Below are positions 25,732 to 55,260 of a stretch of DNA of 64,000 nt, one piece after another (the stretch's first letter is position 1; each line of letters begins with the position of its first letter). The stretch lies in the NCBI RefSeq assembly GCF_000003815.2, contig NC_049983.1, positions 658,524-722,523 of the forward strand, given 5' to 3'. This DNA is from Branchiostoma floridae (taxonomy: Eukaryota; Chordata; Leptocardii; Amphioxiformes; Branchiostomatidae). The notes below the pieces were generated by a model. It was given only the letters and a program-made list of their open reading frames with translations. It made no database searches and was not told where the DNA came from. The position numbers and the translations under genes were made by a program.

Positions 25732-28700
25732 CCGCGCTGCAGCCACTGGAGCAGGCAGTCCTCGTGGTACTGGTGCCTGGCCGGGCAGGGAAACTTGATC
25801 ACCCTTTCTCCTGTGCAGCGTACAAATGTCAGCGTTACGATTGACTTTCCACTGTTTTCGATCACAACACAGGCAAAACTGTGACACCAAGCACACCATC
25901 CTTCCCACCTAGCAGCTGGAAGTAGAGCCTATCAGTAGTCACCTGTGAAAGCTACCACCAAAATCTTGATAGCTAATTGGTATCAGTTGTTTAAAACAAA
26001 ACAGTGATAACCAGTTATCTAATGTTTCTATCATTACCGGTATTATGAAGATTTCACTAATGAGAAAAGTCTCACTGTAAAATTTATGCCTCCTTCTAAC
26101 CTTATACTAGACACTACACCGTGGACTCTACTAGGCGACCCTTTTGGTGTAATGTGCCCCTTTCTGGTGGCACTTCAGTTCTATTGCAACTTTTCTCAGG
26201 AAGTCTACAAAAACCGAGTTCAATAGAACTGATATGCTATTACCTATCAGTTTTTCATTCTCATTTCCTCTTTTCTTCCAAGAAATGATAAGTGTCCATG
26301 AACACTTGTATCAGGTCGTTAGGTCGCTGAATACCAAAGTCAGTCTTGAAGTAAGAAAAAAAAATTGGTTGTGGACTTTGTTATTCAAATGCTGAATCAG
26401 CCTGGGACTGTGACTAATATAGTTGTATCATCTATAACGTGCACTTATCTAAACTCAAAGATAGTAGTATACTGGTAGCTTTAATATCAACGAGAATGAT
26501 ATTGTGACGGAGAATAGACCATTTACCTTCCTTCATGTCTTCTTGGCAAATGACACAGTTCTGTTCGGTATCCAGCTCGAGTATGAAAGCACTTTGTCTC
26601 ATCTCTTCCGCAGCCTCCTCTGTGGCAGGACGTTCGCCCGCTGTGTGTCAAAAATGAGCAACCCCGTAACTCTTCGTGCACTTTTCCTTACAATACTCCT
26701 CTTTGTGGATCATGCTATCATTGACCAACATCGTGTATACTGGATAATGAGTATCAATAGATTAAAAAAATGCCTTGGCCGAGATATTCAAAGACATGCA
26801 GATTCAGATCAGATAGACTTTGAAATTAGGACATTTTTACAAATTATCCATGAAAATGAATGAATGAAGACCTTTATTGTACATTCATACCCACTGGGTT
26901 TAGTACAGGTCACAACAAATGATACAACATGATATAATGATACAATGAATCTACACTACTCAAGGATCGTATTCTACTGCGTACATTCGGCTTCTTCTCG
27001 TTTCTTTGTGATATTGAAAATGTAAGAACAGATATGCTTTATAAGTAAAGGTTTGTCTAGATTCATAAGGAATATAAATTTGTCTATATTACTTAGTTGT
27101 ATGAAGTGGGGGAACATGGATTCTATTAGTCTGTAGAGTTCAGCTCTCTCTTTCTTGTACAAACTACATTCTACTACAAAATGGTGTTCGTCTTCTAACT
27201 TATCTAGATTGCAGTATCTACATATTCGTTGTTCTAGAGGAGTGCGGTTATGTCTTCCGGTTTCGATGTGTAATTTGTGGCAACTGACTCGTAGTTTTGT
27301 GACGGCCGTCCTGTGCCGAATATTGTCAATATCCAGGTATTGTTCCACATTATAAGTGGACTTGAACAGTCTGTAAGACCTCAATTTGTTTTTAGCGGAT
27401 CCACCTTTGTTGTCATTGTGTATCTCTCTTAGAAAAGTTTGAAAATAAATGTCTTTCAGACGCTGATTGATAGAATTGATAATTTGAGACGAATTTGTAT
27501 TGTGCTGTAGAGGACAATGCCATACATAACCATAGCCGCATTCCTCCAGTGATTGGCGAACTCCTGACGCCCAACACTTGGCTCCAGCCTTGTCTAAATC
27601 TATCTGGCAAGAAAGAGCGTCTGACTGGAAACTGTCTGCTGGTACTTTCTGGCGAAGTCTAATTAAGTGTTTAATAGCATTTAGGGAGGCTTCCAAATGA
27701 ATGGGGAACCTCCCTAACTCGGCTCTAGCGGCGAGGCCACTTGTGGATCTTGGCACGTGTAGGGTTTGCTTACAGAATTTTAGATGTATTGTTTCAATAG
27801 GACAGGATTTGGGGCTTTTAACAGAACCCCAGATTTCCGATCCATAGAGAATTATGGGCTTAACACATGTATCAAAAAGTTTGTTTCTGACAGACAAAGG
27901 AGCATCGGCTTTGTCTAGGGATTGATTTATCCCGAATAAAGCTTTCAGACCCTTACTGTACAAGTGTTTGTTGTTCGCCTTGAAAGTACCCGCAGAATTG
28001 ACAACAATACCTAAATAACAATAGTTTGTCACTATTTCAACAGGATTGTTCTTATACATGAAATACACATCTTTTGGTATACGACCACCCCTAGTGAAAA
28101 CAATTATTTTTGTTTTCCTAAGGTTCACATTTAGGTGCCATGTTTGACAGTATTCTTCTAGTCTATTCAAAGAACATTGTAGACCTTGTTTGGATTCAGA
28201 GAAAAGAACTAAATCATCTGCATACAATAGACAAGAGACACGCTTACTGTACATAGTTGGAGGGTTACAAATATCATTATCAAAGACAGATGTAATATCA
28301 CTTAAAAATAAATTGAATAAAGTTGGGCTTAAATTACAACCCTGTCTGACACCACAGTTTGTGACAAAAGGTTCAGTCAGACCTTGACTGTATTTCACAC
28401 GATTTGTAGTTTTTGAATACATGTCTTTGATAGTTCGAAGAAAGTTGCCCTGTATACCTAACTTGTTTAATTTGTAAAGGAGGCCATTTCTCCAGACGGA
28501 GTCGAACGCTTTACTAAAATCTACGAAACATGCAAAGAGACGGGAATTTTTACTTAGATACTTGCTAACTAATGTACTTAACACGAAAAGATTATCTGTA
28601 GTTCTAAAGTTCTTCCTAAACCCTGCCTGGTGGGGTTTGAAAAGACTATTGTTTTCGGCATAACTAACTAAGCGATTGTTTAATATAGAGGAGAATAGTT

Positions 28701-31700
28701 TACCTAAGCAGCTAATTATGGAAATTCCGCGGTAGTTGTCTGGGAGAGATGGGTCGCCGGATTTGTGAATTGGAACAATATGGCTAAGGGACCACTCCTG
28801 TGGGTAATACCCGTTTTGCAGACAATTGTTAAAAAGTTGCAGGAGTGGCGTTTGAAGTACCGATTTACCAAATTTCAACATTTCATTTAAGATCAAATCA
28901 TTTCCACTCGATTTATTGTTCTTGAGGTTTGAAATGGCATTATGTAATTCTTCTGAAGTTATAGGGGAATCTAGAACAGATGGATTAGTAGCGGAGGACG
29001 ACGGATTTAGTTGATCGTTTTCCGGAATTGGAGAGTCGTTTTTACCATTATTAGGGAGTTTGTCTAAATTGCTAAAATGTTCAAACCACTCTTCTTCTGA
29101 GATTTGGTTATTTTCTTGCGTTTTCGTCGGTTTTAGCTTATTAACTAAGTTCCAAAAGGCGCCTGGATTTTTGTCTTTGAGGGAAGACAATTGGGTCATG
29201 ATTTGTTTGTGAAAGTCTGTTTTCTTCTTTTTTATCAGTTTTTTAAATTCTTTCTTTCTTTTGAAATATCTTCCCCTTATGTCGGAATTAAATGGTTGTT
29301 TGGATAGTAAATATGCTAGGTTCTTTATTTCACGTTTTAGTTCGTTACAACTCTTGTCAAACCATTGTTTATTTTGTCGTAGCTGCGGGTGTTTCTTATG
29401 TTTAGTTATCTGTACTGATAGGGATTTGAAACCAACGTCTCTCAGGATTGAACTAAATTCAGAAACAAAGGCTTCTATTTCTCCATTAGATTTTGTGTCC
29501 TTCGTATTTTGTGATGAGAGTGAATTCAGTCTATCGATAAAATGAGATTGAGAAAGGATGTGGTTGAATTTCTGTGCAGATTTATCATCCCAATGAAATC
29601 GTTTTGGAGCGGGATTTCTTTTACGCTTTTGTTGTTTTTCATGCTGGTTTTGATGGTCTGTGTTTGATTTAATGAAGACTGATATCAGGCAGTGATCTGA
29701 AAAGACAGTTAGCGGATGAATTTGAAATAATAAAATGTTTTGCAGAAACGATTGGCTGGAAATTATGTAGTCGACCGTGCTACTACCGTTTGGTTGGTGA
29801 CAGGTATAGTTACCTTGCAGGTCCCCAGCCACCCTGCCATGAAAATGGGATCATCAGTAGTAGACTGAAAACTCTTGGACATGCTTGGGGGAAGGGGCTG
29901 GCGTGGATGCCATGCTCTCTTAACGTGACAAGGAGAGTTGTAAGTCAGTAAGAGAAACGTAGTAAGAACCGTGGGCACACCAACACCCACCTCTTTCAGC
30001 CAGGCTGGCGAGAAACGCGTTGATGCGTCTGATCGCTTCTTCGTGCTCACGGTGGCGTCTGATCTCTTCTTCCTGCTCGCGGTGGCGTCTGGTCACTTCT
30101 TCCTGCTCACGGTGGCGTCTGGTCAATTCTTCCTGCTCGCGGCGGCGTCTGGCTTCTTGTTCAGCCTGAATACATACACGTACATATTCACAAAACTAAC
30201 TTCATAATCTCGATCTCTGCTGTCTGATACGATTGAGGAAAACTTTACATTTGAACTTGTGATACATATCGCTGGCCGCGAAGACGGTTAGGCCCCCTTT
30301 CCACTAGACGGCGATCGCGCTTCCTTCTGACTGCGACCTACATAGGATATGTGTAACCTTCACTTTCATACTAGGTATATCATACACAATGTAAAAGAGT
30401 GACCGAAAAGACAACAAAACGCACAAATTGTAAAAAGACTCGGTTTTTTTCAATACAATTCGTTGAGCGATCTGTCAAATTTTAGGTCGCAGAGAGAGCG
30501 CGGCGAGAGCGCCGTCCTAGTGGAAAGGGGGTATGAGCGATACTTATTTCGTTTTTTTTAGTGTAATTCGTGCCAGTGAGTATTCAACATAGGTAACATG
30601 ATTTGTAGGAGTGACTGTTATATGTTGGTTTCATTGCCAATGGGGTACTACAAATGTATTCATGTAAAGAAGTTATGTTTTAATTGGGACTTTGCAACTC
30701 GGTGGTACTACAGCATGGAACTAACTTCTTGGACTCTAAGGTCCTCAAGAACGACTTTTCACTTGCATTCTCAGTTAACCTTATCTTAACGTCGATGAAG
30801 TTAGACATCCAGGTAATAAGATACGCCAAAAAGTAGTTACTCAAGGAACTGGATATGATTTTGGAAACGGTCAGACGTTTCATATCCAGTTGCTTGAGTA
30901 ACTGCTTTTAGGCGAACCTTATCTTAATTTTCTGATAACAGTTGAGCAGAAAATCAACACCCGAGTGGGGTCCATTTGGACCCCATGCGTAAACTTTGAA
31001 GTGCCATTTGAACATTTTCAATCTGAAGAAAAATTCCTTCCGTGACTTTGTCAATCAATATCTGCTATACCTTCTCCTAAGTTTTTACGAAGATTGGTAC
31101 ATTACTGTGAAAACTATAAAGAAAGTCTGTGTTCAGTCGTCAGCAAAAATGTGCAGTTTTTAAAACAAACTTTTGAGACTAACTCCTTAACTACTTATTA
31201 TAGGACCACCAAACTTTCAGAGATTGATAAACATGTAAAACTAAATCCTCACAAAAATTTCTGTGTCATCACTATATAATATGACGACATTATGACGCCA
31301 TTTAGCTTATAAGGGCGGCCATCTTGGATTTTGACCAATGACGTCATGAAATTAGCATAAATTATAAATTCTAAATTATGAAAATTACATTGAATTTCAT
31401 AGAATTTAATTGTTGTAAGAAAACAAGTGTAGTTTACCAAGAAAACCTTGTTTAAATCGAAATTTGCAAATTTTGGCAAAAATATGCCTGACATAATTCC
31501 GTTGCCATGGCAACCCCCAAAAATGATAAACTTATTTTAATGACTTTAAAATTTTGCTAACAATATGTTGTGATATATAACCAAATTTCGTAGCTTTATC
31601 TTTACCCGTTTATGAGTTATACGCCATAAAAGTTGCTCAGGACCCCAAAATTCTCCTCTCTGGTCAGAATAGGCTTAGTGCAAAACTGGTCCTTCTGATC

Positions 31701-34258
31701 TTTTACATAAATTATGATAATAAGCAGGAATTATCAACACCTTAACATGTCAAAATATTCCTCTTACATTGACAAAGCAATGTATGTACAATGATCACTG
31801 ATAAGAATTGGAATTAAGGTTTTATGAACAAAACATTTTAGGGTCCGTTTGGACCCCACTCGGTCATTTCAGTCGCAAAAAAGGTCGGGTGCTTGAGGGT
31901 TAAGCGCGCAAATCTGAGAAAGGAGATACGTTGACTTTAAAGTTAACATGATCTAACAGTTACATAATGGCAATCTATCGCTGTGAAATATAGAAGCTGT
32001 TAGATTAGTAGAAATCCATTAAAACAGACCTGCTGTCTCCTGACCCTCCTCTCCTCCTGCAGCTGTCTGAACCGTGCGCACCGGCTGCTGAGTACATTCT
32101 TCATGTGACCTGCCTGTTCTTGACTCATATGTAGGATTCTCAACTGACCGGAGCTGAGGACAATATCGCACGTATGGCCCCAAGTCCTGATTTCGTCAAT
32201 TGTGGACACAGAAACCACGTCAACAACATCATTTCTGACGTAGATCACGTGTCTGTTCGTAACAAAAAGCCTGAAATGAGCTTCGTTAACGATTGTGGAT
32301 ACTTCATCTGAGAGAATTTCTTCCTGCAGCTTCAGAGCAACCAAGTCGTAAACAGACAAAGAGGTGTTCTCTCGCGGACCTTCTGACGGGGCAATGTGTT
32401 TTATTGGTTCAAGAATTAGTTTTTGAATTTCGGTTGATCCAAACGAAGTGAAGAGCCGAGAAAAAAACGCCCATATCTGAGCAATTTTCAAAGCGTAGCA
32501 CACTATCTTCATCACAAAATAAGCGTAGAGAATGGCACAAAGGCCAAGGATAGAAAAAATGGTGACGTATGGGTCAGATGTATTCAAAACGAGATCCATA
32601 TATTCAGGTTCTCTGGTTACACTGAGAACACCAAGTACAAAGTCTGTCAGAAAGCCGACCAAAACGTGAGACTCAGTGGCGAGATTAAACTCTTTTGGAT
32701 TTGAATCATATGCCTTCGATATGATAGAAACTAGATCTGATTTTTCCATGCCGGGGAGAACGTATCTTCCCATGCCTATCGCTCGTATGATGGCCATGAG
32801 TTTTTTTACTGACATGACGCTGAAGTTGATTGGATGTCGCACGGAATAACTACGATGGGAGTAACGTAGTGGCCTCTTGACTACAAGCTGGTTGATGTTT
32901 GAGTCGTGAGCTGCGTGCTTCTTAAACTGGAAGATCATGGGTTTGCATATGTCCATGCCACAGCCGACCTCCTTGGTTTTGAGACGCAAGGGTATGCCAT
33001 GGTGAACCTAAACAACGGAATTCATCAGAAATTATTGGAGCCCTTGTCGTACTTTCTGTAATGTGACATCATAGTCTGTTATATGTGTTAGTTTGATAGT
33101 CTGAGAAAAGAGGTAAATAAGATCATCCCCATGCTGATTTATCTCACTGAATAGCATCTGGTCGTGACAGAGACGAATAAAAATTGTAATGATAAAGTGT
33201 AGTTCCACGCTCAGAACCGCAAACGTACAGAGAAAAGGGAATTGCTGTGCAAGAACGACTGCTGGACAGTAGACCCAATGATGAAGTTTATCCAATATTT
33301 TAGCAAACCCTTGGCTATGTGAGTAAAAGTGATCATTTTGTTGCTAAAGTCGTATATTGTATATATATATAATGTATATATATATTATAATGGCTCTCCC
33401 GTGTGGGATAAAGGATGGAAATGAAGGAATTAATGAATTAATTAATGACCTTTATTGTTCCTATTTTCCCAATCAAGCTAACTACAGGTCACAATAAAGA
33501 CAAAACATACATGTATCTTAGATCTAGCCTAGTATAGACTTCTTCTCGCTTCTTGATACATGTAATAGTGAAAACTGTGAGATTGCATAAGGAATATGAA
33601 TATTTCAGTGTTACTTATATGTCTAAAGTGAGGAAATCTACTTTCTATGTGATTTTTTATGCCTTACCTGAACGTACTGCTTCCACAAGTTGCCGCGAGT
33701 AGTATCCACAATCTCCTGTTCGCTGAGAACGAACGGCCCGTACATGGCGTTGTAAAGGTAGCGGTGAACTTGTGTAAACCACAGGAATACCATGATGGAC
33801 ACAGCGACCACCATTGTGTACTAAAGGAAAGTCAATTTTATTCCTACTTTGTACCTGTGTGATTCTTTTCCAGTAGACGGAAATTGGCAGTTAGACATGT
33901 AGTAACATAAATAAAAAATATAAACGGAGATTAAGGTTGACTTTCAAACATAACTAATATTCTAGAACAGATAATTAATCTTTTACCATTGACCGTTTAA
34001 TCATTCATTCATCAATTCTTCATTACTCTACAGCCCCCTTCAACCAAAATTTTCTCTTTTAACATACTCTGTTCAACGTTAACGCCAGATCCTAATAATT
34101 TAGCTACTCCAGTTTATGATAAACAGAAATACGGTGAGCCATGAATAATGTTGTAGTAATAAAACCTTGATGTGGTCCCAACATTCCTTCATCATCTGGT
34201 TTCTTTTCCAGCGGATCGGTTCAGCAAAAATGGTGTCCCAGCCGCTTCGCAAGGCCAT
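25732..34258 (-). CDS. Array unit B: membrane-anchored RING-H2 protein, probable E3 ubiquitin ligase (3' end in gap)
   Basis: Exons are 34258-34166, 33820-33668, 33007-32030, 30165-29991, 26640-26527 and 25810 into the gap at 25731; at least 530 residues. Exon 30165-29991 ends in phase 1 and exon 26640-26527 begins with two bases, so they join in frame although a 3-kb LINE lies between them. Layout: family start ([15 protein letters not shown]), membrane segment (VVAVSIMVFLWF), SAP-like pair (KKLMAIIRAIGM ... MEKSDLVSII), a longer second membrane region (FSILGLCAILYAYFVMKIV), PH/GRAM-like region (FRLFVTNRHVIYVRNDVVDV), and a coiled coil with REQEE(x)TRRH repeats. Then come NCVICQEDMKEGERVI and FPCPARHQYHEDCLLQWLQR, the first six zinc ligands of a RING-H2 finger. 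RING-H2 proteins normally recruit E2 enzymes to ubiquitinate targets; here this would occur on a membrane (inference). Confidence 0.72.
26855..29860 (-). mobile_element. Non-LTR retrotransposon (LINE), 5'-truncated, in unit B intron
   Basis: A 952-codon open frame (29832-26974) starts in the C-terminal part of an APE-type endonuclease (NGSSTVDYIISSQ, then SDHCLI). It continues through a full reverse transcriptase: SHIVPIHKSGDP, FACFVDFSKAFDSVWRNGL, GVRQGCNLSPTLFNLFLSDI and LLYADDLVLFSES with catalytic YADD. It ends in a C-terminal zinc-knuckle-like CRYCNLDKLEDEHHFVVEC. The 3' end carries (AATG)n at about 26855. It is in the same orientation as unit B and lies about 130 bp inside the donor of exon 30165-29991. 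The unbroken frame implies a recent insertion. Confidence 0.9.
30291..30530. mobile_element. MITE family 2, copy 2
   Basis: CCCCCTTTCCACTAGACGGC at the left mirrors GCCGTCCTAGTGGAAAGGGG at the right. The interior matches the copy at 17361. It lies about 125 bp before the coil exon of unit B. Confidence 0.8.
30780..30920. mobile_element. Hairpin MITE (GTTACTCAAG...), copy 1
   Basis: AGTTACTCAAGGAACTGGATA faces TATCCAGTTGCTTGAGTAACT across a short loop (GATTTTGGAAACGGTCAGAC). ACGTCGATGAAGTTAGACATC and AGGTAATAAGATACGCC precede it. The same modules occur reversed at 60295-60410; a trace is near 7880. Confidence 0.7.
30945..31905. mobile_element. ~0.95-kb non-autonomous DNA element
   Basis: Near the left end is CCGAGTGGGGTCCATTTGG and near the right end GGTCCGTTTGGACCCCACTC, with outer CAACACCCGA and TCGGGTGCTTG as imperfect inverted termini. 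The interior includes CCATCTTGGATTTTGACC and ATGACGTCATGAAATTAGC, shared with the element at 56127-57057. No coding frame. Confidence 0.6.
33425..33656 (-). mobile_element. 3' fragment of the same LINE family as at 26855
   Basis: (TTAATGAA)n, GACCTTTATTGTTCCT, ACTACAGGTCACAATAAAGA, CTTCTTCTCGCTTCTTGATA and GCATAAGGAATATGAATA parallel the 3' end of the 26.9-29.8 kb LINE. It lies in the intron next to unit B exon 2. Confidence 0.7.
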
Positions 34259-39915: not shown

Positions 39916-39984
39916 TGGGTTTCGCATACGTGAGTAGTATAGTAGGAGTGCGCTGCTATTATTTATTCAGGCGCAAGCAGGCGC

Positions 39985-40180
39985 AGGTCAAAGGTCATCA
40001 CCTGCCGATATAATGTATTCAGGCGGAGCAGGTCAGAGGTCAGATATGATGTATTCAGGTGGAGCAGGTCAGAGGTCAAATATGATTTATTCAGGCGCAG
40101 GTCAGAGGTCAGATATAATGTATTCAGGCGCAGGTGAAAGGTCAGATATTATGTATTTAGGCGGGGCAGGTCAGGGGTCA
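39985..40180 (+). promoter_or_regulatory. Six-fold array of AGGTCA DR1 sites, left arm
   Basis: A repeat of about 30-34 bp (ATTCAGGCGGAGCAGGTCAG...) carries AGGTCA half-sites spaced by one base: AGGTCA-A-AGGTCA at 39985; AGGTCA-G-AGGTCA at 40030, 40066 and 40099; AGGTGA-A-AGGTCA at 40132; AGGTCA-G-GGGTCA at 40168. DR1 is the recognised layout for RXR heterodimers and HNF4/COUP-type receptors. The array ends about 130 bp before the Bcl-2-like ATG. Confidence 0.6.
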
Positions 40181-40311
40181 GATATCATATATTCAGGCGG
40201 AGTAAGGTAACTATGACAACCCCACCCCACCCCAAATGAACCCCCCCCCTCTCTAATCGTGAATGACATGCCCTTATTTGGCCTGGTTAAGTCTACTGAG
40301 ATCAGTCTTTA

Positions 40312-40812
40312 ATGGATGCGCTGAAAGCACAAACAACAGACGTCTTTCGTCAGTTACTATATCACAAAGCCCCAGACTTGTTTCCTGAATACAGACACCC
40401 CAGTTCGGTGACGTACGTAAAAGTAGTACAATGGGTGGATGTGATCTCGGCGGAAGAGGAATATGGAAAGATTATTGACAGCTTCATGGACAACGTACCC
40501 AACGCGAGGGATGGGCTGAAAACGGTGCTCGAAAAAGTACTGCAAGAGCGACGATTAAACTGGGGTCGACTCGTTACCGCAATGGCTTTTGCCGTGGACG
40601 TATGTGTCAACTCGCACGAACGGTATGAAAGAAATACCGATGCCATCTCCACCGAGGTAGCAACGTTGATTTGCGACTATGCGGGAAACTGGGTATTACG
40701 CCAACTTGGATGGGACGGATGGCTTGACCGTCGTCGGCACGACAAGTACCCGTCGTTTGTACAGTGTCTCTGTTGGCTTCTCACTGCACGCGTTTGCATC
40801 ATCGTGACGTAG
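40312..40812 (+). CDS. Bcl-2 family-like protein, intronless, left arm copy
   Basis: An uninterrupted 166-codon ORF (TAG). Residues 80-97 (RRLNWGRLVTAMAFAVDV) form a canonical BH1 with NWGR, and residues 127-139 (WVLRQLGWDGWLD) form a BH2. The spacing of about 45 residues is as in Bcl-2 proteins. Residues 41-62 may be a degenerate BH3 region, though the Leu-x3-Gly-Asp core is not evident. The end (FVQCLCWLLTARVCIIVT) is hydrophobic and could serve as a weak membrane tail. Bcl-2 proteins control mitochondrial outer-membrane permeability; whether this one protects or kills cannot be told. The lack of introns suggests a retrocopy or capture by the palindromic element. Confidence 0.75.
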   Translation: MDALKAQTTDVFRQLLYHKAPDLFPEYRHPSSVTYVKVVQWVDVISAEEEYGKIIDSFMDNVPNARDGLKTVLEKVLQERRLNWGRLVTAMAFAVDVCVNSHERYERNTDAISTEVATLICDYAGNWVLRQLGWDGWLDRRRHDKYPSFVQCLCWLLTARVCIIVT

Positions 40813-40919
40813 ATTTTGCACTGAACACGCCCGAACATGCCCGAGCATGTTAAAACACGCCCACGCACGGTACGCTGGTTGGCCAACGCTAGATGTAATG
40901 TTGATTTACATAATTGCAT

Positions 40920-41375
40920 AAGATTATTGCTTTGGAGTAGCTATACGTGTTGCTCCGGAGTAAAAACACTGCTCCGGAGCAGTTTATTTTGCTCCGGAGT
41001 AAAATAAACTGCTCCGGAGCAGTTTATTTTACTCCGGAGCAGCAACACGTATAGTTACTCCAAAACAATGTTTCACTGCATGTACATACAGATATGTTCG
41101 TACGTACATGACAAATATACTAACTTATTACACCAAATATACTTACTCATTTACTCCGGACCAGTATTTTTTACTCCGGAGCAGTGTTTTTGCTCCGGAG
41201 CAACACTATACGTTACTCCAAAGCAATGTTTTACTGCATGTACATATAGATATGTTCGTACGTGCATGACAAATATACATACTTACAACAAATATAGTTA
41301 CTCACTTACTCCGGAGCATACTCCGGAGCAGTGTTTTTACTCCGGAGCAACACGTATATCTACTCCAAAGCAATA
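40920..41375. repeat. Palindrome centre with ten CTCCGGAG motifs
   Basis: CTCCGGAG, itself an 8-bp palindrome, occurs ten times exactly, in the contexts TGCTCCGGAGCAGTTTATTTT and TTTACTCCGGAGCA. Two direct copies of about 145 bp (from 41064 and from 41217, each with CTGCATGTACATA and ATATGTTCGTACG) make up the middle. The AT spacers are themselves inverted, so the strand can fold into many nested hairpins. Confidence 0.8.
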
Positions 41376-41487
41376 ATCTTATGCAATTATGTAAATCAAC
41401 ATTACATCTAGCGTTGGCCAACCAGCGTACCGTGCGTGGGCGTGTTTTAACATGCTCGGGCATGTTCGGACGTGTTCAGTGCAAAAT

Positions 41488-41988
41488 CTACGTCACGATG
41501 ATGCAAACGCGTGCAGTGAGAAGCCAACAGAGACACTGCACAAACGACGGGTACTTGTCGTGCCGACGACGGTCAAGCCATCCGTCCCATCCAAGTTGGC
41601 GTAATACCCAGTTTCCCGCATAGTCGCAAATCAACGTTGCTACCTCGGTGGAGATGGCATCGGTATTTCTTTCATACCGTTCGTGCGAGTTGACACATAC
41701 GTCCACGGCAAAAGCCATTGCGGTAACGAGTCGACCCCAGTTTAATCGTCGCTCTTGCAGTACTTTTTCGAGCACCGTTTTCAGCCCATCCCTCGCGTTG
41801 GGTACGTTGTCCATGAAGCTGTCAATAATCTTTCCATATTCCTCTTCCGCCGAGATCGCATCCACCCATTGTACTACTTTTACGTACGTCACCGAACTGG
41901 GGTGTCTGTATTCAGGAAACAAGTCTGGGGCTTTGTGATATAGTAACTGACGAAAGACGTCTGTTGTTTGTGCTTTCAGCGCATCCAT
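41488..41988 (-). CDS. Bcl-2 family-like protein, intronless, right arm copy
   Basis: Mirror copy of the left-arm ORF, also intact at 166 codons. It differs at residue 44 (Ala here, Val on the left; a GTG/GCG change). BH1 (NWGRLVTAMAFA) and BH2 (WVLRQLGWDGWL) are identical. The two genes converge on the palindrome centre. Confidence 0.75.
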   Translation of the reverse strand: MDALKAQTTDVFRQLLYHKAPDLFPEYRHPSSVTYVKVVQWVDAISAEEEYGKIIDSFMDNVPNARDGLKTVLEKVLQERRLNWGRLVTAMAFAVDVCVNSHERYERNTDAISTEVATLICDYAGNWVLRQLGWDGWLDRRRHDKYPSFVQCLCWLLTARVCIIVT

Positions 41989-42121
41989 TAAAGACTGATC
42001 TCAGTAGACTTAACCAGGCCAAATAAGGGCATGTCATTCACGATTAGAGAGGGGGGGGGGGGTTCATTTGGGGTGGGGTGGGGTTGTCATAGTTACCTTA
42101 CTCCGCCTGAATATATGATAT

Positions 42122-42318
42122 CTGACCCCTGACCTGCCCCGCCTAAATACATAATATCTGACCTTTCACCTGCGCCTGAATACATTATATCTGACCTCTG
42201 ACCTGCGCCTGAATAAATCATATTTGACCTCTGACCTGCTCCACCTGAATACATCATATCTGACCTCTGACCTGCTCCGCCTGAATACATTATATCGGCA
42301 GGTGATGACCTTTGACCT
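42122..42318 (-). promoter_or_regulatory. Six-fold array of AGGTCA DR1 sites, right arm
   Basis: Mirror of the left-arm array, for example TGACCTTTGACCT at 42306-42318 (perfect DR1 on the minus strand). It lies upstream of the minus-strand Bcl-2-like ORF. Confidence 0.6.
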
Positions 42319-42453
42319 GCGCCTGCTTGCGCCTGAATAAATAATAGCAGCGCACTCCTACTATACTACTTACGTGTGACATAAGGTCACAACAATGCAC
42401 CAATACATTAATCGGTCACTATTTCTATCCTCTCTGTTCCGTACTAAACTCAC

Positions 42454-43339: not shown

Positions 43340-45809
43340 AATCCCTCTCGGTGACTCGGAATGGACTCTACATACATACATACACTATCATCGTCACAAA
43401 ACCGACGAAGAGAAGGACCAGGAACGTTGGGACAGAAATAACTGAAAAATATGGGTCGGATGCATCCAAAACGAGATCCATATATTCGGTTCTTTTATGT
43501 ACCTCGAGAACACCAAAATTTGTCAGAAAGCCGACCAAAACCTGAGACTCAGTGGCCAGATTAAATTATTTCGGATTTGAGTCGTATGCCGTGGATATTA
43601 TAGAAACTAGTTCTGATTTTGCCATGCCAGCGATGACGCTCTTTTGCATTCCAATTTCCCCTATGATGGCCAGTAGTTTTTCCACTGACATGACGTTGAA
43701 GTTGATCGGATGACGAACAGAATAACTCTGATGGTTGTGTGTGTGTGGCCTCTTGACTACGAGCTGGTTGATGTTTGAGTCGTGAGCTGCGCTCTTCTTA
43801 AACTGGAAGATCATGGGTTTGCACACGTGAAGGCCACGGTCACAAAACACCTCGGTGACATCTAGACGTAAGGCGGTGCCGTGGTGAACCTGAAATGGAA
43901 ATCAACGTGAAATGAATCATTGTAGTCCTTCACATACTTTCTGTAATGTCCATAATAGTCTGTTATATGGATTATAATTTTAACGGCTGAGAAAAATAAT
44001 ATTTAAGAGCTTATCTTCAACAAAACAGACCAACGCTATATCTGCAGTATTCACAGTACCAGGTAAATTCTAAGAGCGAGATCTTTTCGGCAAGCAAAAT
44101 TAGTGCTGCGTACGTACCTAAAACCTGGAAATGGAACTGGACTTGTAAAAGCATTTAGGTCCAAGTAAAAACCTAGAGGTTGGGAACCAGGTCCGGACTT
44201 AAAAGCTGTCTCTTACTTATATGTTCTAAACCATCTAAAACCTTCCAAAGATAGTGAAATTTGTACCGAAAAAAAGGCAAAAACATTGCTGGGTTTGTCT
44301 TTATTACTGACCTTTTGTGTTTACTACAGACTGTATATGATTTTGCATATATTTTTCACATTGCATGTCAAATTTATGCTAACATGCAATTTCATATGAA
44401 ACCAAAAAAAATTAGCGCACATATGCAATGATGGGTTTCTGTAAATGCATTTAAGTTCGCGGGGATTTAATTTCGCGGTACCGGGACTTTTCGCGGTGGA
44501 TTTAATTTCGCGGTAACACCATAGACGGCAGTCTAATACCACAATAGAAAAAATGTTCGCGGTGGTGTTAAATTCGCGGTTAAATGATCGCCGCGAAAAC
44601 CGCGAACATTGATCCACCGCGAACATTTCTGCATTTACAGTAATGTCCGGACTGACAAGTCCAGACCTGAACCTGAACTGCTGGACCTGAATCCGGACCT
44701 GCACCTAAATATGAGTTTAGGTATGCAGCACTAAGCACAATTTATGGACAGTGGACAGTGCGTATTCTCTATGTCTTACCTGAACGTACTGTTTCCACAG
44801 GTTATCTGGTCGTGTGTCACAATCTCCTGTTCGCTGAGGACGAAAGGTCCGTACAGCACATTGTACAGGTAGCGGTGACCTTGTCTGGGCCAAATGATCC
44901 CAACACTATCACCACGAAGACCATTGAGATCAAAATAGCTTTCTGGAGGAGAGTGAAGAAGATTTTCTGGTGTTGGTGTCTCTGGACATGCTATGGTCGA
45001 GATTTTGTAGCTTCATTCCATGGTAATGTGACATATGTAATTGAGAAAGTGAAGAATATTCATAGATGGAATTATGCAAATAGAGATTACTGCATGATTA
45101 ATAATGAGAAAACATCATAATACCATTGCGCTTAATCACAGAAATTTCATACTTGTGCTATTTGAATATTACATGTGCAAATTATGACCTCATTTGCTTA
45201 AATTATCATAAAATGCTGGTATAACCATAATCCGTTTTGTTAGGAGATGACGGCCATACTTTGACAATTTCTGTTAATTGTGTGAAAAAGATGAGCAGAT
45301 GCTTTGATGTATGCAAATGACCTCATTTGTATAATAAATGTGAAACGATCAAAATAACTTGGCATGTATAGGGTCGTGGAACTCTAGTTATCTTCTAGTA
45401 GACGAGTAGACGGACGTGTAGATACTTTCCAAATGCAGTAGCATAAATAACAAACTCAAACGGAGATTGAGATTGCTTTTCAAACACATGAATTATTCTT
45501 GAACTTAGGATTGCTATTCATTAATGACCCCTGATTGTTCTCCCACTCAACCTCCACGAAAAGCGGCCTTGATATGGATCAAATATCGAATTTTAATAAA
45601 GGTACAAAACGAAAAATCAAAACAGTCCATCGAACGTTTACCGTCGGCAATAGCTCTTTTACCATCGGCTGTTTAAACTTTCATCCATTCATTAATTAGT
45701 TCATCATAACTCAAACCTTGATGATGTTCCAACATGTCCTCATCGTCTGGTTTCTTCTCCATACGATTGGTTCGGCAAAAATGGTGTCCCAGCGGCTTCG
45801 CGTCGCCAT
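43340..45809 (-). pseudogene. Array unit D: decayed paralogue
   Basis: Exon 1 (45809-45717) is intact, encoding [19 protein letters not shown] with a GT donor. Exon 2 (about 44942-44780) keeps its donor but carries at least two 1-bp changes of frame: one before the GHRYLYN stretch and one after SEQEIV. Exon 3 begins at 43889 (VHHGTALRLDV...). It keeps the SAP-like pair (EKLLAIIGEIGM ... MAKSELVSII), then has an in-frame TAA at 43576-43578 where unit A has Tyr and unit B Glu. Homology continues to about 43340 ([23 protein letters not shown]) and then ends: the PH/GRAM, coil and RING parts are missing. Confidence 0.8.
44438..44642. mobile_element. CG-rich MITE family 1, copy 5
   Basis: Starts CTGTAAATGCATTTAAGTTCG and ends CGAACATTTCTGCATTTACAG, inside unit D between exons 2 and 3. 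Confidence 0.8.
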
Positions 45810-48417: not shown

Positions 48418-51400
48418 ATGTTCTCCCTGTGGCTAGGAATAGCAGTGTCTCTTCTAATAACGCTACCCATCTGCAAAGGCGAAACGGTAAGTATATTTTA
48501 ACGTTGCGTCTTGTGTATGCTGTTAACCGTGGGAGGTGTTCTCTTGGTTAGAGTTATTGACAAATAATCCAAAGATTCTGGGCTCAAATAAGGCCAGACG
48601 TTTTGTTAAGACAGTGCTAAGGTACAGGTGTGTGTGTCGGTGTGTGTGGAGACCTGTGCTTGTTGACAGTGTTCAGGAACTTAGGTTGCTTAGCACAAGA
48701 GGGACAAGACAAGTGTTTTCATCACCAAAGTTTACCGAACGATGCAACCAACGCGCCAAACCAAATATAAGAACTCGGAAGACAATGAAAGGAAGTCTAT
48801 ACAGAATAATTTACTTACTAATTGTTACTATACTTACTTATTTATACAGAATAAAGATTATCGATGAGGGAGTAGGTTGAAATTGCTAGTTCTTTGGGTC
48901 CCCTAGGGGAAGAAGATCTCCATGCCCCCCTCCCCCTGATAACTTGGGCTGGGCGAAATCGCTGTGACACCAGTCTCACCCAGCTTGTTGCGCCTAAAGG
49001 TGGTTTGCCACCGATGGGAAACAAACAAACACTGTAGGACCTAAAAGTAGGTTCTTCAAGTTCCAAGCAAGCCTAAACGGATGGGCATTAGAAGCCCTGA
49101 AAAAGGTCAGTTTACAACCGCAAAGTCATAATGTATTACGTTGTTGCAATTTCGACATAGAAAGAAAGAACATCAAATCATTGTGCCGGGGGCAGCCCCA
49201 TATATGTTCCTACACCCCTATATGTTAGTATCAACGTTAGGGGTAGGGTCTTGGCAGCAAATGGCTCTCTGTACAAACATGTATGGTTGTAATAACCAGA
49301 AGTGCCATTAAGTTAAAAATTTTCAGTGACAGTAATAATGGTCAGTATTGTCTAAGATGGTATTGGCCCTATCAATAATGGTTGCTACAAAACATTGCAT
49401 TTCATACGTCGTTACCATCCGCCATCTCCTTATTTGTTTTAAATTTGGTTGCACGATTCTCCAAATTTACGGAGTCATGCTCTAGATACAATGACAAACA
49501 TACCAAACAGTTTATATAACACTGAGAAAAAAAATCCAGCAACTGCACCTAATAGTTTGTGTAACGCAAACTTCCCTGTCTAGGGCATTAACGGGCCCTT
49601 CATAATCTTAAGCCAGGTGGCACAAGCTAGTTACAATAATCTAATGTGTTGAAGTTCAGGATTCAATGTAACAAATATGTGAAAATGAGCTTTCTTTTTA
49701 AAAGCCAGTGGAGGTCATTGAACTACAGCCGACGCACAGGCAGTATTCGGTAGCAGCATCAAGGCGTAAATTCACGGCGACCGAAGAAACATCCGACTTA
49801 TACAGTCTCGGAACGAATGTATTCCTTTACCATTCAGCATAGTTTCCAGCTCAATGTAGCTCACAGAGGAGTTTTAAGCTTAAAGAAAAAAGCATGTTTC
49901 AGAATGCCACCAACATGCCGCCAACGTACTGCGATAAATGGGAACCAATAGGCGCAAATGGGCAGGAACTAAACACTAACTAATAAACGCCAACAAGCGC
50001 CATCAATTCTGTTAAGAGTCAGATGTCTGTTTCAGGGTTTGTTCTTATGAGTCTACAAACCTAATTTGATATCATTAAACATACATAGTACGAAAATACA
50101 ATGACGTAAAATTTGGTAAATAGTTTGTATCCGTTCCACTAGGTCATTTCTGTTACTGTCTTTCAAGGTTATACTTATACTTTATGATATGTTACCTATG
50201 TTGTACGAAGTATGATTAAACATCTTTGTATCATTAAAAATCTCTTTTTTATGCATTCAATCATTTCACATTAGTTTTAATTCATTGAAAACGCTGCGGT
50301 ATTCAATAACCTGAGAAAAGTAAAACGTACTTTGCCGCTTGGCACCTCAACTGTGGGCTGACTTACTGGAGAGAAAATATAGATTTCAAGGAATACTGCA
50401 CATTCAATAACTCAGTTTTCGTATGTGTTGTTTTCCCTCTTCACATACAGGTGAAGACCAAAGTGTTGGTCCTGGGTGCCGGGATGGCGGGAATATCGGC
50501 CGCACGTAGCCTCAACCAGAGCGGCCTGACCGACTTCATCATCCTCGAAGGTACCAACCGTATCGGGGGTCGAGTTTGGAAGGTGCCGTTCGGCGGAAAG
50601 ACCATTGACATCGGCGGGAACTGGGTTCATGGGGTCTCCGATGACAATCCGGTATGGGCGATGGTTAAGAGTTATAACATGACTGGAACCTTTAGCAACT
50701 GGGACAACATCACGGTAAGGAACAGCACTGGTCAAGTTGTGACCTCACAGTGGCACACAGTCCTCGCTTCCCTCGACGAACCATCTGAGACCGCCTACGA
50801 CCTAGCTGTTGAGAGAAACGCGACAGGACAACCCGATATGCCGCTACGAGCTGCTCTGAAGTTAAGCGGTTGGAACCCAACCTTGCCCATGCAGAAAGCT
50901 GTTGAGTACGTCAGCTATGACTGGGGTTATGGAGAAGAGCCAGATGTGTCGTCTTTGCTCAGGGGGGAGATCGAACCGACAATCGAGCAGTTTGGCGAGG
51001 ATGATTACTTTCTAACAGACCCACGAGGATATGTCTACATCATCGATCAAATGGCAAAAAGCTTTCTCGCAGGAAATGACCAACGGCTCAAGCTCAACAA
51101 AACGATCACCAGCATCCAATGGGGGAACAATGGTGTCACTGCCACCACCAAGGATGGTTCTAGATACACCGCCGACTATGCTATCGTGACCTTCAGCATG
51201 GGGGTTCTCCAAGACAACTTGGTCCAGTTTGTCCCGAGTCTGCCCGATTGGAAGCGAGAGGCCATCTTTCGAGTTCGCATGGCCTTGTACACGACGATCT
51301 ACCTGAAGTTTCCATCTAAATTCTGGGACGACGATGAGTACATCGTGTACGTGGCGGAGCGCAGGGGCTACTACACCGTGTGGCAGAACATGGAGGCTGA

Positions 51401-52467
51401 GGGGTTGTTTCCAACAGGGACCAATCTTCTTTTAGGTCAGTCATAATAACTTTCTCACATTCACTCACAAAAAGAAAAGAGTTCTCCTTAATTCTAACAT
51501 CACAAAACCCACACATATTAGAAAATGTGGGATCTTTCGTCTCCCACTGTCTTTGAAAATGGAGTCGAACCCAATAACCCCGCCTCTAGAGTTTGCTTTT
51601 ACTAGCTTTAGACAAGAGTAAACACTTGTGATATTGTTTTTTTTGCACTGCAGTTGTTTGAATCCCTTATGTTACCTGCAATTATTCCACGGGCAAGAAT
51701 TTGCAATAAACTTTATATGATGATGTATGAAGATGAACAAATGTTTGGCATCCGTCAACAGCCCTAGGAACTAAAGCCCAAAGCTGTTTTTATGTTTTGC
51801 TGATAAGTATTTTGAAGGCAGTAATGTTCGCATTTAACGAGCATCATATTTTCTTCCTTAAGTGACAGGCTTTGCTCTTCTCCAGGCTGTAATGTTCTCG
51901 TTCATCGAGTTTCATTTGTGTTCTCTTTTCCTTTCAGTGACCTTGATGGATGATGAGGCACGACGTGTAGAGGCCCAGTCTGACCAAGCAACTCAGGCCG
52001 AAGTCATGGCTGTCCTCCGCACCATGTACGGAGCCGGCATCCCCGACCCTACAGACATCCTGGTGCCGAGATGGGAACAGGACCCGTTCTTCCGCGGCTG
52101 CTACGCCAACTGGGGAGTCGGCATCAATGATGAGGAGCTGCACAAGCTGCAGGCTCCTGTCGCCGGGCGTCTTTTCTTCGCAGGAGACGGGACAGGACCG
52201 CACTATGGCTACCTGCAGGGTGCCTTCTTCGAGGGAGCGAGAGTAGCTGACGCCATCGCGACGTGTGTGGGAGGAGGCCGGTGTGAGAAGGAGTACCAGC
52301 CGCCCCGCGGGGGTTGTACCTGTCCCGCTGCAGACAACTTCGACAGCCAGGCCACGGTAGACAACGGTTCCTGCATGTACCCCACCAGCAATGGAGACCG
52401 TACCATGCCGTTTTCAACATCATTCTACATTTTGTCTGTTATGATCGCAGTCAAAGATATGTTGTAA
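48418..52467 (+). CDS. Secreted FAD-dependent polyamine oxidase-like amine oxidase (3 exons, complete)
   Basis: Exons are 48418-48486, 50451-51435 and 51938-52467, with junction phases 0 and 1, giving 527 residues. Exon 1 encodes a signal peptide (MFSLWLGIAVSLLITLPICKG). Residues 27-44 (KVLVLGAGMAGISAARSL) form the FAD-binding Rossmann motif, followed by NRIGGRVW at 59-66 and GGNWVHGV. The C-terminal flavin site is RLFFAGDGTGPHYGYLQGA. The stretch VTLMDDEARRVE ... DPTDILVPRW resembles plant-type extracellular polyamine oxidase more than the cytosolic animal PAOX/SMOX (from memory). Such enzymes oxidise spermine or spermidine to aldehydes plus H2O2; secretion would place this outside the cell. 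After the catalytic domain comes GCTCPAADNFDSQATVDNGS plus C, a Cys motif of the GCTDPxAxNYxPxAxxDDGSC type, then a short hydrophobic end (FYILSVMIAV). Confidence 0.88.
48487..50450 (+). other. Intron 1 of the amine oxidase
   Basis: 1.96 kb separate the signal-peptide exon from the catalytic exon. I see no other exon or recognisable mobile element in it. Confidence 0.6.
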
Positions 52468-54148: not shown

Positions 54149-55260
54149 TCACATTGCGTCTCGTCGTGCACGTGGTCTGTGCACGACCTTACAGTAGTTA
54201 CTCCAGAAGGTGCTTGTGGAGACAGCATCAGAGCATGTCAGCGCTCTTACAATATCGTTCTCGGACGCCAGGAGGCGAGTCGCAAATGAATGCGTCAGCT
54301 TACGCCTCCTGGCGTCGAAGGTGTCTAAGCGCAACAGTGCAAACAGCCAGCTGTTGCTGGTGGATCTAGGTTGCGACGTCATGATTTTAAGGGCGTCGTG
54401 GAATGCAACTCTGACTCTCTGGAGCGCGGCGGCGCTGTGATTAGACCACACCTGTACACAGTACAGGGAACAACAATGTGACATGAACAGGACTCGTTTT
54501 GTCTCAGCAGAACAGTTACCGAATGTTCGGGATAGGGTGTTGGCTTTGGTGTACAGATAGCGAGTTTGTTTGCGAATGGAGTCATCGTCGGAAAGATCAG
54601 AAGTAATTTGGTAGCCAAGATATGTGGTTGATTGGACATAAGGTAAAGGTCTGCTGTTGAGCGTAACCGAGGGAGGCGTCCCCTGTAAGCGGATACGCTT
54701 GCAGGGGAAATACATACAACTCGTTTTCCTATCACAAAATGTCATGTCATTTGCGAGACCGAAGGACTCGCAAACATTGATCAATTTCTGTAGGGCCTTT
54801 ACAGAGGGGCAAATCAAGCAGATGTCGTCGGCATACAATAAATGATTTACGCAGACCTTACCGTGGAAGCACCCGACATTGGCGGAATTAAGCCTCGCAG
54901 TTAGGTCTGCAACATACGTATTAAACAATAACGGGGACAATAGGCTGCCCTGGGGGACACCGTTACCGAGGCTGAAGCTGTCTGAGACGGTAGTTCCCCA
55001 GCGCACAGTGAGGACTATCATCTTAAACCAATATACAATGATACGCACTAAGTATACAGGTACGTTTTTGTCTATCAATTTCTGAAACAATACATAGTGA
55101 TTAACCTTGTCAAAAGCCTTGGCGGCATCAAGAAAACAAACGAAGACGGGAGAACCTCGGTTTTTAAAATAGGAGATGATCTCTTTGAGGGCAAAAATGC
55201 ACATGTCTGTACCATGGTGCTTTTTAAAGCCAAATTGGTTCGCTGGGGAAGTCAGATATT
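54149..55260 (-). mobile_element. LINE reverse transcriptase fragment
   Basis: An open frame of about 351 codons (55204-54149), with homology starting slightly upstream (SNQFGFKKHHGTDM). Motifs: VFVCFLDAAKAFDKVNH, GVPQGSLLSPLLFNTYVADL and the catalytic LLYADDICLI, then the C-terminal thumb region. Both ends are truncated: endonuclease and most of the RT N-terminus are absent. Confidence 0.88.

What the first reader, a model, noticed from the sequence alone, without database searches (positions are those of the whole stretch)
39928..42375. Palindromic insertion carrying two head-to-head Bcl-2-like genes
Arms of about 1.06 kb are nearly identical, and both ORFs are intact intronless Bcl-2-like proteins with BH1 and BH2. 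This looks like a foldback-type mobile element that captured an apoptosis regulator, or a single insertion event followed by inverted duplication. Near-identity implies recent origin or ongoing arm-to-arm conversion.
Basis: partly seen in the sequence, partly recalled or inferred. Interest (0 to 1): 0.9.

Follow-up and report, generated by a model that had tools for sequence, protein, structure and literature searches.

The report
Mini-Maverick carrying twin Bcl-2 genes
In a lancelet genome, a short mobile element left over from a virus-like transposon (a Maverick/Polinton) carries a gene of the cell-death-control type in each of its two mirror-image ends, and dozens of related copies, some with viral-type core genes, lie elsewhere in the genome.

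Summary
The palindrome is real: 2,438 bp (39933-42370) between exact 6-bp duplications (TACGTG), with ends AGTAGT...ACTACT. Each arm (about 1.05 kb, 4 substitutions apart) holds an intact, intronless Bcl-2-family ORF of 166 aa; the ORFs converge (tail-to-tail, not head-to-head). It is neither a foldback element nor a local inverted duplication. At least 41 arm copies exist in the genome. Ends and duplication length are those published for Mavericks/Polintons, and 11 of 12 near-identical integrases (rve plus chromodomain) lie 0.5-1.2 kb inside such an arm. Pieces of long copies encode PolB-, ATPase- and adenovirus-protease-type proteins, PC4 and ribonucleotide reductase. So this is a core-less, non-autonomous Maverick whose terminal repeats include a Bcl-2 gene. 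A sister Polinton has a diverged Bcl-2 near one end, outside its repeats. Partner arms are sisters in 9 of 11 pairs, as expected if ends are made alike before insertion. The ORFs are under mild purifying selection and lie downstream of AGGTCAnAGGTCA (DR1) arrays. Anti-apoptotic action, expression and mobility are inferred, not shown.

The parts
39927..39932 (.). Left target-site duplication TACGTG
   Evidence: sequence
39933..40927 (+). Left terminal inverted repeat (about 995 bp), starting AGTAGTATAG; 40927 (arm-query position 687) is about the furthest point to which arms of core-bearing copies match (their matches end at 650-687); the inverted repeat of the window copy itself runs on to 40979
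39985..40180 (+). Array of six DR1-type motifs (AGGTCAnAGGTCA, 0-1 mismatch) in 33/36-bp tandem repeats upstream of the ORF
40312..40812 (+). Bcl-2-family ORF, 166 aa, intronless, left copy
40928..41372 (.). Central stretch of palindromic TGCTCCGGAGCA-type repeats, shared with other short members of the family
41488..41988 (-). Bcl-2-family ORF, 166 aa, right copy (one amino-acid difference, V44A)
42123..42318 (-). Mirror-image array of six DR1-type motifs
41373..42370 (-). Right terminal inverted repeat, ending CTATACTACT
42371..42376 (.). Right target-site duplication TACGTG

Best explanation
The thing is a 2.4-kb non-autonomous member of a Branchiostoma floridae Maverick/Polinton (adintovirus-like) family. 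Pieces of long members (the C14 copy spans about 16.6 kb between its ends) encode PolB-, integrase-, protease- and ATPase-type proteins and a protein of the F54H12.2-like, probably capsid, family. The terminal inverted repeats, about 1 kb each, contain a Bcl-2-family gene reading inwards, downstream of an array of DR1 motifs. The window copy kept little more than its two repeats; the core was lost, and a related element's integrase inserted it at TACGTG, making the 6-bp duplication (inferred). Because linear, protein-primed genomes copy one end from the other, the two repeats, and so the two Bcl-2 genes, are kept alike until insertion and then drift (mechanism inferred; the arm pattern is shown). 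The Bcl-2 protein most likely acts as a viral-type Bcl-2, blocking mitochondrial apoptosis of the host cell by binding BH3 motifs (inferred from family). The short element keeps the gene mainly because it lies in the repeats needed for movement, possibly also because it helps the carrier cell survive (inferred).
For: TSD and ends: exact 6-bp duplication here and in 6 of 10 further inverted pairs, one more with 5 of 6 bases; the AGTAGT start was found at 19 of 20 outer ends; the published Maverick end motif 5'-(AGT)2//(ACT)2-3', 6-bp TSD and TIRs of 46-1,447 bp match (PMC8097293, passages). Copies: 41 long arm matches examined; the tool had 164 candidates and scored 40. Core: 12 integrases 96-100% identical, 11 of 12 lying 507-1,200 bp inside a Bcl-2 arm (about 0.002 expected by chance). 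Integrase with rve plus chromodomain, and PC4; adenovirus-type protease; A32 ATPase over cut-off; PolB-type frames; F54H12.2-like protein; RNR small chain. Arms: partners are sisters on the tree in 9 of 11 pairs, 0-1.4% apart in 8 of 11. Selection: 185 nonsynonymous of 307 changes against 221 expected, p 6e-6; 0 of 285 pairs with dN/dS over 1, median 0.45. A sister Polinton on C19 has a Bcl-2 ORF that is the best non-family match of the element profile (48.6 bits, against 26.5 for the best of four host frames).
Against: The window copy itself has no Polinton core gene; the link is through its repeats. Two of 11 inverted pairs (C3a, C7) have mismatched arms and no matching TSD, and C11x has no recognised left end. 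One of 12 integrase copies (C158) has no Bcl-2 arm within 2.7 kb. Protease scores lie just under Pfam's cut-off (19.7 and 20.7 against 21.3 bits). Pfam's PolB model matched one of six frames tested from five pieces (25.5 against a cut-off of 25.8 bits); the other PolB evidence is similarity to a PolB-bearing stretch of the same genome. The genome-wide PolB search placed none of its 13 matches in the listed pairs. Much of the C14 copy reads N. Related sequences can share changes by descent and conversion, which weakens the selection test. The Bcl-2 fold could not be confirmed: model pLDDT 51.5 and no structural match at E 0.001 or better. 16 of 41 Bcl-2 ORFs were not intact or not fully readable.
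Confidence: 0.92

Rival explanations
1. A foldback-type element (long internally repetitive inverted repeats) that captured a host Bcl-2 gene.
For: Arms are long and hold tandem 33/36-bp repeats; multicopy.
Against: 6-bp TSD, (AGT)2 ends, and Polinton core genes between or beside the same arms in long copies.
Confidence: 0.03
2. A single insertion followed by a local inverted duplication at this locus, with later arm-to-arm gene conversion.
For: Arms nearly identical. Continuing conversion after insertion cannot be excluded.
Against: The exact TSD sits outside both arms, so the palindrome was inserted as a unit; ten other loci have inverted arms, six with their own exact duplications.
Confidence: 0.03
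3. A Bcl-2-bearing Maverick derivative that the host has domesticated as an apoptosis regulator, so that selection on the ORF is host selection.
For: Both ORFs intact; dN/dS under 1 across copies; DR1 motif arrays could give tissue-specific expression.
Against: Arms only 0.4% apart suggest a young insertion; the selection signal is spread over dispersed copies, including core-bearing ones, as expected for selection during element replication; no expression data.
Confidence: 0.07
4. The ORF is Bcl-2-like but pro-apoptotic or non-apoptotic (as some viral Bcl-2 folds act on innate immune signalling).
For: Only BH1 and BH2 are plain by sequence; fold and BH3 binding untested.
Against: Best PDB sequence matches are pro-survival A1/Bfl-1, Bcl-2, Mcl-1 and Bcl-xL; a gene kept in a virus-like element is more likely pro-survival (inference).
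Confidence: 0.2

Closest known systems
Mavericks/Polintons of vertebrates (PMC8097293, passages read)
   Same: 6-bp TSD, (AGT)2//(ACT)2 ends, TIR length range, intronless genes, integrase, PolB, ATPase, protease; accessory regions flanking the core; size of full copies (the C14 copy is about 16.6 kb between its ends, worked out).
   Different: Here the accessory gene is Bcl-2 and sits inside both TIRs; the window copy is a 2.4-kb core-less derivative. The term Bcl-2 does not occur in that paper's held text (0 occurrences).
Adintoviruses (PMC11071296, passages read; the founding paper, Starrett 2021, was not held)
   Same: Integrase with C-terminal chromodomain; [quoted passage not shown]
   Different: Family-defining PolB/hexon relationships not tested here; that text holds no word beginning with bcl, lancelet or Branchiostoma.
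Burro giant Gypsy retrotransposons of planarians (PMC6431247, passages read)
   Same: A transposable element carrying a BCL2-like (and BIR) motif.
   Different: LTR retrotransposon, with the motif inside a giant polyprotein; a different class of element.
Viral Bcl-2 proteins of herpes- and poxviruses (PMC7823800, passages read)
   Same: Viral Bcl-2 proteins that bind BH3 motifs; an expected working model.
   Different: Different viruses; similarity to them was not tested beyond family profiles and PDB sequences.

Membership tests
Maverick/Polinton | 6-bp target-site duplication | tested here: met
   TACGTG at the window copy; exact in 6 of 10 other inverted pairs
Maverick/Polinton | (AGT)2//(ACT)2 or related end motif | tested here: met
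   AGTAGT...ACTACT; 19 of 20 outer ends; motif from PMC8097293
Maverick/Polinton | rve-type integrase | tested here: met
   Relatives: 11 of 12 near-identical copies beside the arm. Absent from the window copy itself
Maverick/Polinton | Protein-primed PolB | tested here: inconclusive
   Relatives only: PF03175 7.7e-6, just under cut-off, in one of six frames; frames of L113, L115, L118, L119, L135 resemble the 766-aa frame at C7:18086000-18088300, where one search has PF03175 matches (blastp 9e-16 to 2e-18). NSxYG and DTDS strings in L135 fit recalled PolB motifs. So PolB is well supported, protein priming untested
Maverick/Polinton | A32-type packaging ATPase | tested here: met
   Relatives only: Pox_A32 over cut-off in L112 and L135
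Maverick/Polinton | Adenovirus-type protease | tested here: inconclusive
   Relatives only: Peptidase_C5 4e-4 and 7e-4, just under the curated cut-off
Maverick/Polinton | Full size 12.7-24.6 kb with all core genes | tested here: not met
   Window copy 2,438 bp without core genes: filed only as a non-autonomous derivative
Adintovirus | Integrase with C-terminal chromodomain | tested here: met
   Relatives only: Chromo 2.1e-11 (L036) and 4.3e-7 (L042)
Adintovirus | Hexon and PolB that group with adintoviruses | not tested
   No reference set at hand; ORF478 matches F54H12.2-like proteins and one record named Capsid protein
Bcl-2 family | Pfam Bcl-2 profile with BH1 and BH2 | tested here: met
   44.8 and 45 bits against cut-off 31.4; PDB matches to A1/Bfl-1 and Mcl-1; BH1/BH2 assigned by eye
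Bcl-2 family | Bcl-2 fold | tested here: inconclusive
   pLDDT 51.5; top Foldseek hit Mcl-1 but E 1.4
Bcl-2 family | BH3 binding and control of apoptosis | not testable with these tools
   Needs protein and cell assays
Foldback element | Own family hallmarks rather than those of another superfamily | tested here: not met
   Polinton ends, TSD and core genes in relatives; foldback hallmarks are recalled

The most novel reading that the evidence does not exclude
The short Bcl-2-bearing elements are satellites of full Mavericks: stripped to the two ends and an anti-apoptotic gene, they are moved by the proteins of full members while supplying two Bcl-2 copies under nuclear-receptor-type (DR1) control, so that a defective element contributes to the survival of the cell that carries both.
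Probability: 0.25. Interest if true: 0.8.

Novelty: new variant of a known kind. Interest (0 to 1): 0.62.

Why it matters
It gives a multicopy record of a virus-like element of an invertebrate chordate carrying a Bcl-2 gene, with the gene drawn into the terminal repeats and thereby doubled. It makes testable whether Mavericks block host cell death, how repeats of such elements grow and stay alike, and whether core-less copies keep a useful gene. It also warns that Bcl-2 counts in lancelet genomes can be inflated: of 45 Bcl-2 profile matches in this genome, 38 lie in copies of this element family (against the places).

Tried and rejected
Relatives outside lancelets: viral contigs gave no relative of the Bcl-2 protein or of the integrase. 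The protein database gave only two relatives of the Bcl-2 protein: P0001 reads the same, by eye, as the C9a copy of this genome over its 167 residues, so it is probably lancelet DNA; P0002 is 86% identical and unnamed. Coding reading of the DR1 repeat array: open for 90 codons here, but the frame is interrupted in most other arms, so rejected. Rfam: no match in the window at gathering scores. Structure: model too poor, Foldseek inconclusive. Empty site: the left-flank search did not complete, and the right flank was not tried. C11 20-kb pair: interior pieces hold retroelement genes, so it was not used as a full Maverick. Papers: no report of Bcl-2 in Maverick TIRs or of this lancelet family was seen in the listings of searches or in the passages read; the library lacks most subscription papers and the founding adintovirus paper.

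Full report
What is there. The palindrome is confirmed. The inserted unit is 39933-42370 (2,438 bp). Its ends read AGTAGTATAG and CTATACTACT, and it is flanked by an exact direct repeat TACGTG at 39927-39932 and 42371-42376. The arms differ by four substitutions and a C-run length. Each holds a 166-aa ORF with a Pfam Bcl-2 match over the cut-off; the best solved relatives by sequence are A1/Bfl-1, Bcl-2, Mcl-1 and Bcl-xL. The ORFs converge, so they are tail-to-tail.

How many copies. The window's own genome could be searched (G000, 513 Mb, 431 contigs). The arm gave 110 matches, with 40 of 164 candidates scored, so counts are lower bounds. I took 41 long arm matches, the two of the window included; the other 69 matches are short (mostly pieces of the central repeat) and were not counted. 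Ten further inverted pairs span 3.6 to 20 kb. Two contigs have the same lengths (21,813,864 and 22,973,701) as Branchiostoma floridae contigs named in the protein database, so the species is very probably B. floridae.

What family. I fetched the outer ends of the ten pairs. AGTAGTATA was found at 19 of 20 ends. Exact 6-bp duplications flank 6 of 10 pairs (C1, C14, C9a, C15, C5b, C18), C9b matches in 5 of 6 bases, C3a and C7 do not match, and the left end of C11x was not found (the duplications were read off its output by eye). With the window copy, 7 of 11 pairs have an exact duplication. Vertebrate Mavericks have 6-bp duplications, the end motif (AGT)2//(ACT)2 and TIRs of 46-1,447 bp (PMC8097293, passages only).

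Core genes. Pieces of the C14 and C7 copies encode an adenovirus-type protease (7e-4 and 4e-4, slightly under the curated cut-off) and an integrase with rve and chromodomain; C7 and C18 also encode PC4. Searching that integrase in the genome gave 12 copies 96-100% identical (over at least 404 of 417 residues); 11 of 12 lie 507-1,200 bp inside a Bcl-2 arm, and the twelfth (C158) has PC4 but no Bcl-2 within 2.7 kb. PC4 was found in 10 of the 19 inward pieces of single arms. Pieces from other copies gave an A32-type ATPase, a borderline PolB match, a full-length-looking ribonucleotide reductase small chain (327-aa open frame) and a C2H2 zinc-finger frame. Frames from five pieces resemble a PolB-bearing stretch elsewhere in the genome, although the genome-wide PolB search itself reported none of its 13 matches within these copies. 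The 478-aa ORF matches 'F54H12.2-like' proteins of lancelets, echinoderms and others; one relative is named Capsid protein. The window copy has none of these and is therefore a non-autonomous derivative.

Two classes. Arms of core-bearing copies stop matching at arm-query positions 650-687. In the short class, including the window, the arm runs on into palindromic CTCCGGAG repeats, often with a zinc-finger ORF (232-236 aa where complete) or a piece of ribonucleotide reductase; C154 is a mixed case, its arm match ending at 687 although a zinc-finger ORF follows. Arm trees mix the two classes: the window arms are nearest to C9b (short, 1.2%) and C14 (long, 1.3%).

Why the arms are alike. On the arm tree, partners are sisters in 9 of 11 pairs; distances, measured from the left arm, say the same. 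Divergence within a pair is 0-1.4% in 8 of 11, 3.6% in C11x, and 8.8% and 7.7% in C3a and C7, the two pairs without matching duplications. Three of the left arms (C14, C5b, C18) are incomplete. The simplest reading is that ends are made alike during replication and drift after insertion; C3a and C7 would be recombinants or neighbours. Continuing conversion after insertion is not excluded. Arm divergence here (about 0.4%) then measures time since insertion; no lancelet rate was applied.

The Bcl-2 gene. 25 of 41 arms have an intact ORF of 163-171 aa; several of the others are cut by N or by the edge of the fetched stretch, others carry frameshifts. Pairwise dN/dS has a median of 0.45, and 0 of 285 pairs (those of 300 with dS over 0.05) exceed 1. 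On a tree of 21 of the 25 sequences (second arms and one near-duplicate dropped), 185 of 307 changes are nonsynonymous against 221 expected (p 6e-6); the ratio is 0.44 for transversions and 0.67 for transitions. This is mild purifying selection; shared ancestry and conversion make the p value optimistic.

Where the gene came from. PF00452 gave 45 places in the genome, 41 of them over the cut-off: 38 in this family, one (C19:834502) in another Polinton, and six host-like loci. The C19 Bcl-2 lies about 6 kb from a PolB and 14 kb from an integrase 67% identical to this one, near the right end of that element, reading inwards, outside its short repeat; no Bcl-2 was found in the left-end piece tested. 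End pieces of two other Polintons with related integrases (C5, C12) also gave no match to this Bcl-2. The element profile scores the C19 protein 48.6 bits along nearly the whole length including the tail, against 26.5, 22.3, 11.5 and 11.0 for four host frames (the frames of two more host loci, L125 and L126, were printed but not scored). Frames of five of the six host loci run on past GGW into what looks like an intron (my reading; splice sites not tested), while the element gene reads through. So a terminal Bcl-2 gene probably predates this family, and the repeat later grew over it (inference).

Regulation. All 21 arm ends checked (C11x left not among them) carry 3-6 AGGTCAnAGGTCA motifs with at most one mismatch, some overlapping; the 12 such motifs in the 64-kb window are all in this element; first-order Markov resamples of the array average 0.004. 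The nuclear-receptor meaning of DR1 is recalled. The rest of the 33/36-bp unit looks conserved too (by eye), so a role in replication or end recognition is as possible as a promoter.

What is shown and what is inferred. Shown: insertion anatomy, copy number, linkage to Polinton-type genes, arm pattern, ORF conservation. Inferred: mobilisation in trans, homogenisation by replication, anti-apoptotic action, expression. Structure prediction did not help.

Known precedents. A planarian retrotransposon with a BCL2-like motif (PMC6431247, passages) and anti-apoptotic homologs in adintoviruses (PMC11071296, passages) make Bcl-2 in an element of this kind unsurprising in principle. Two copies within the TIRs, and core-less copies that keep them, I did not find described in the searches listed.

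Noticed in passing
L117:2520-3500 (piece near the C15b copy), L047:159-620 and L048:1557-2018 (C9b), L105:844-1116 (C231): A ribonucleotide reductase small chain (3e-116) beside one long copy and pieces of it in short copies, in both halves in C9b: the family carries nucleotide metabolism genes too.
   Followed up: partly
L135:2-2563, L119:2054-3499: A Vsr-type endonuclease-like stretch lies inside the PolB-region frame (weak matches).
   Followed up: no
G000:C19, about 818254-835388: Sister Polinton of about 17 kb with a diverged Bcl-2 outside its short repeats; its ends lie in CA-rich DNA so the duplication could not be called.
   Followed up: partly
L123:69-608 (C13:9100785): A host Bcl-2-like gene that reads through the usual intron place and resembles C13:12126680: possibly a retrocopy.
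   Followed up: no
window 18755-19852, 32000-33007, 43566-43901 (- strand): Three frames that look related by eye, with no Pfam match: a repeated host gene or element.
   Followed up: no
window 26974-29850, 54149-55258: Reverse-transcriptase frames of LINE-type elements.
   Followed up: no
window 50310-51446: Flavin amine oxidase gene (E 9.5e-44); the frame at 51862-52467 looks like its continuation but was not scanned.
   Followed up: no
G000:C4:34126054 and C3:5119948; C3:33305361 and C3:33154853: Pairs of element copies almost identical at different places, the first pair with the same break in the Bcl-2 frame: segmental duplication or assembly redundancy.
   Followed up: no
G000:C9:963584 and C9:970699: PolB pieces in inverted orientation 7 kb apart, another candidate element family.
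   Followed up: no
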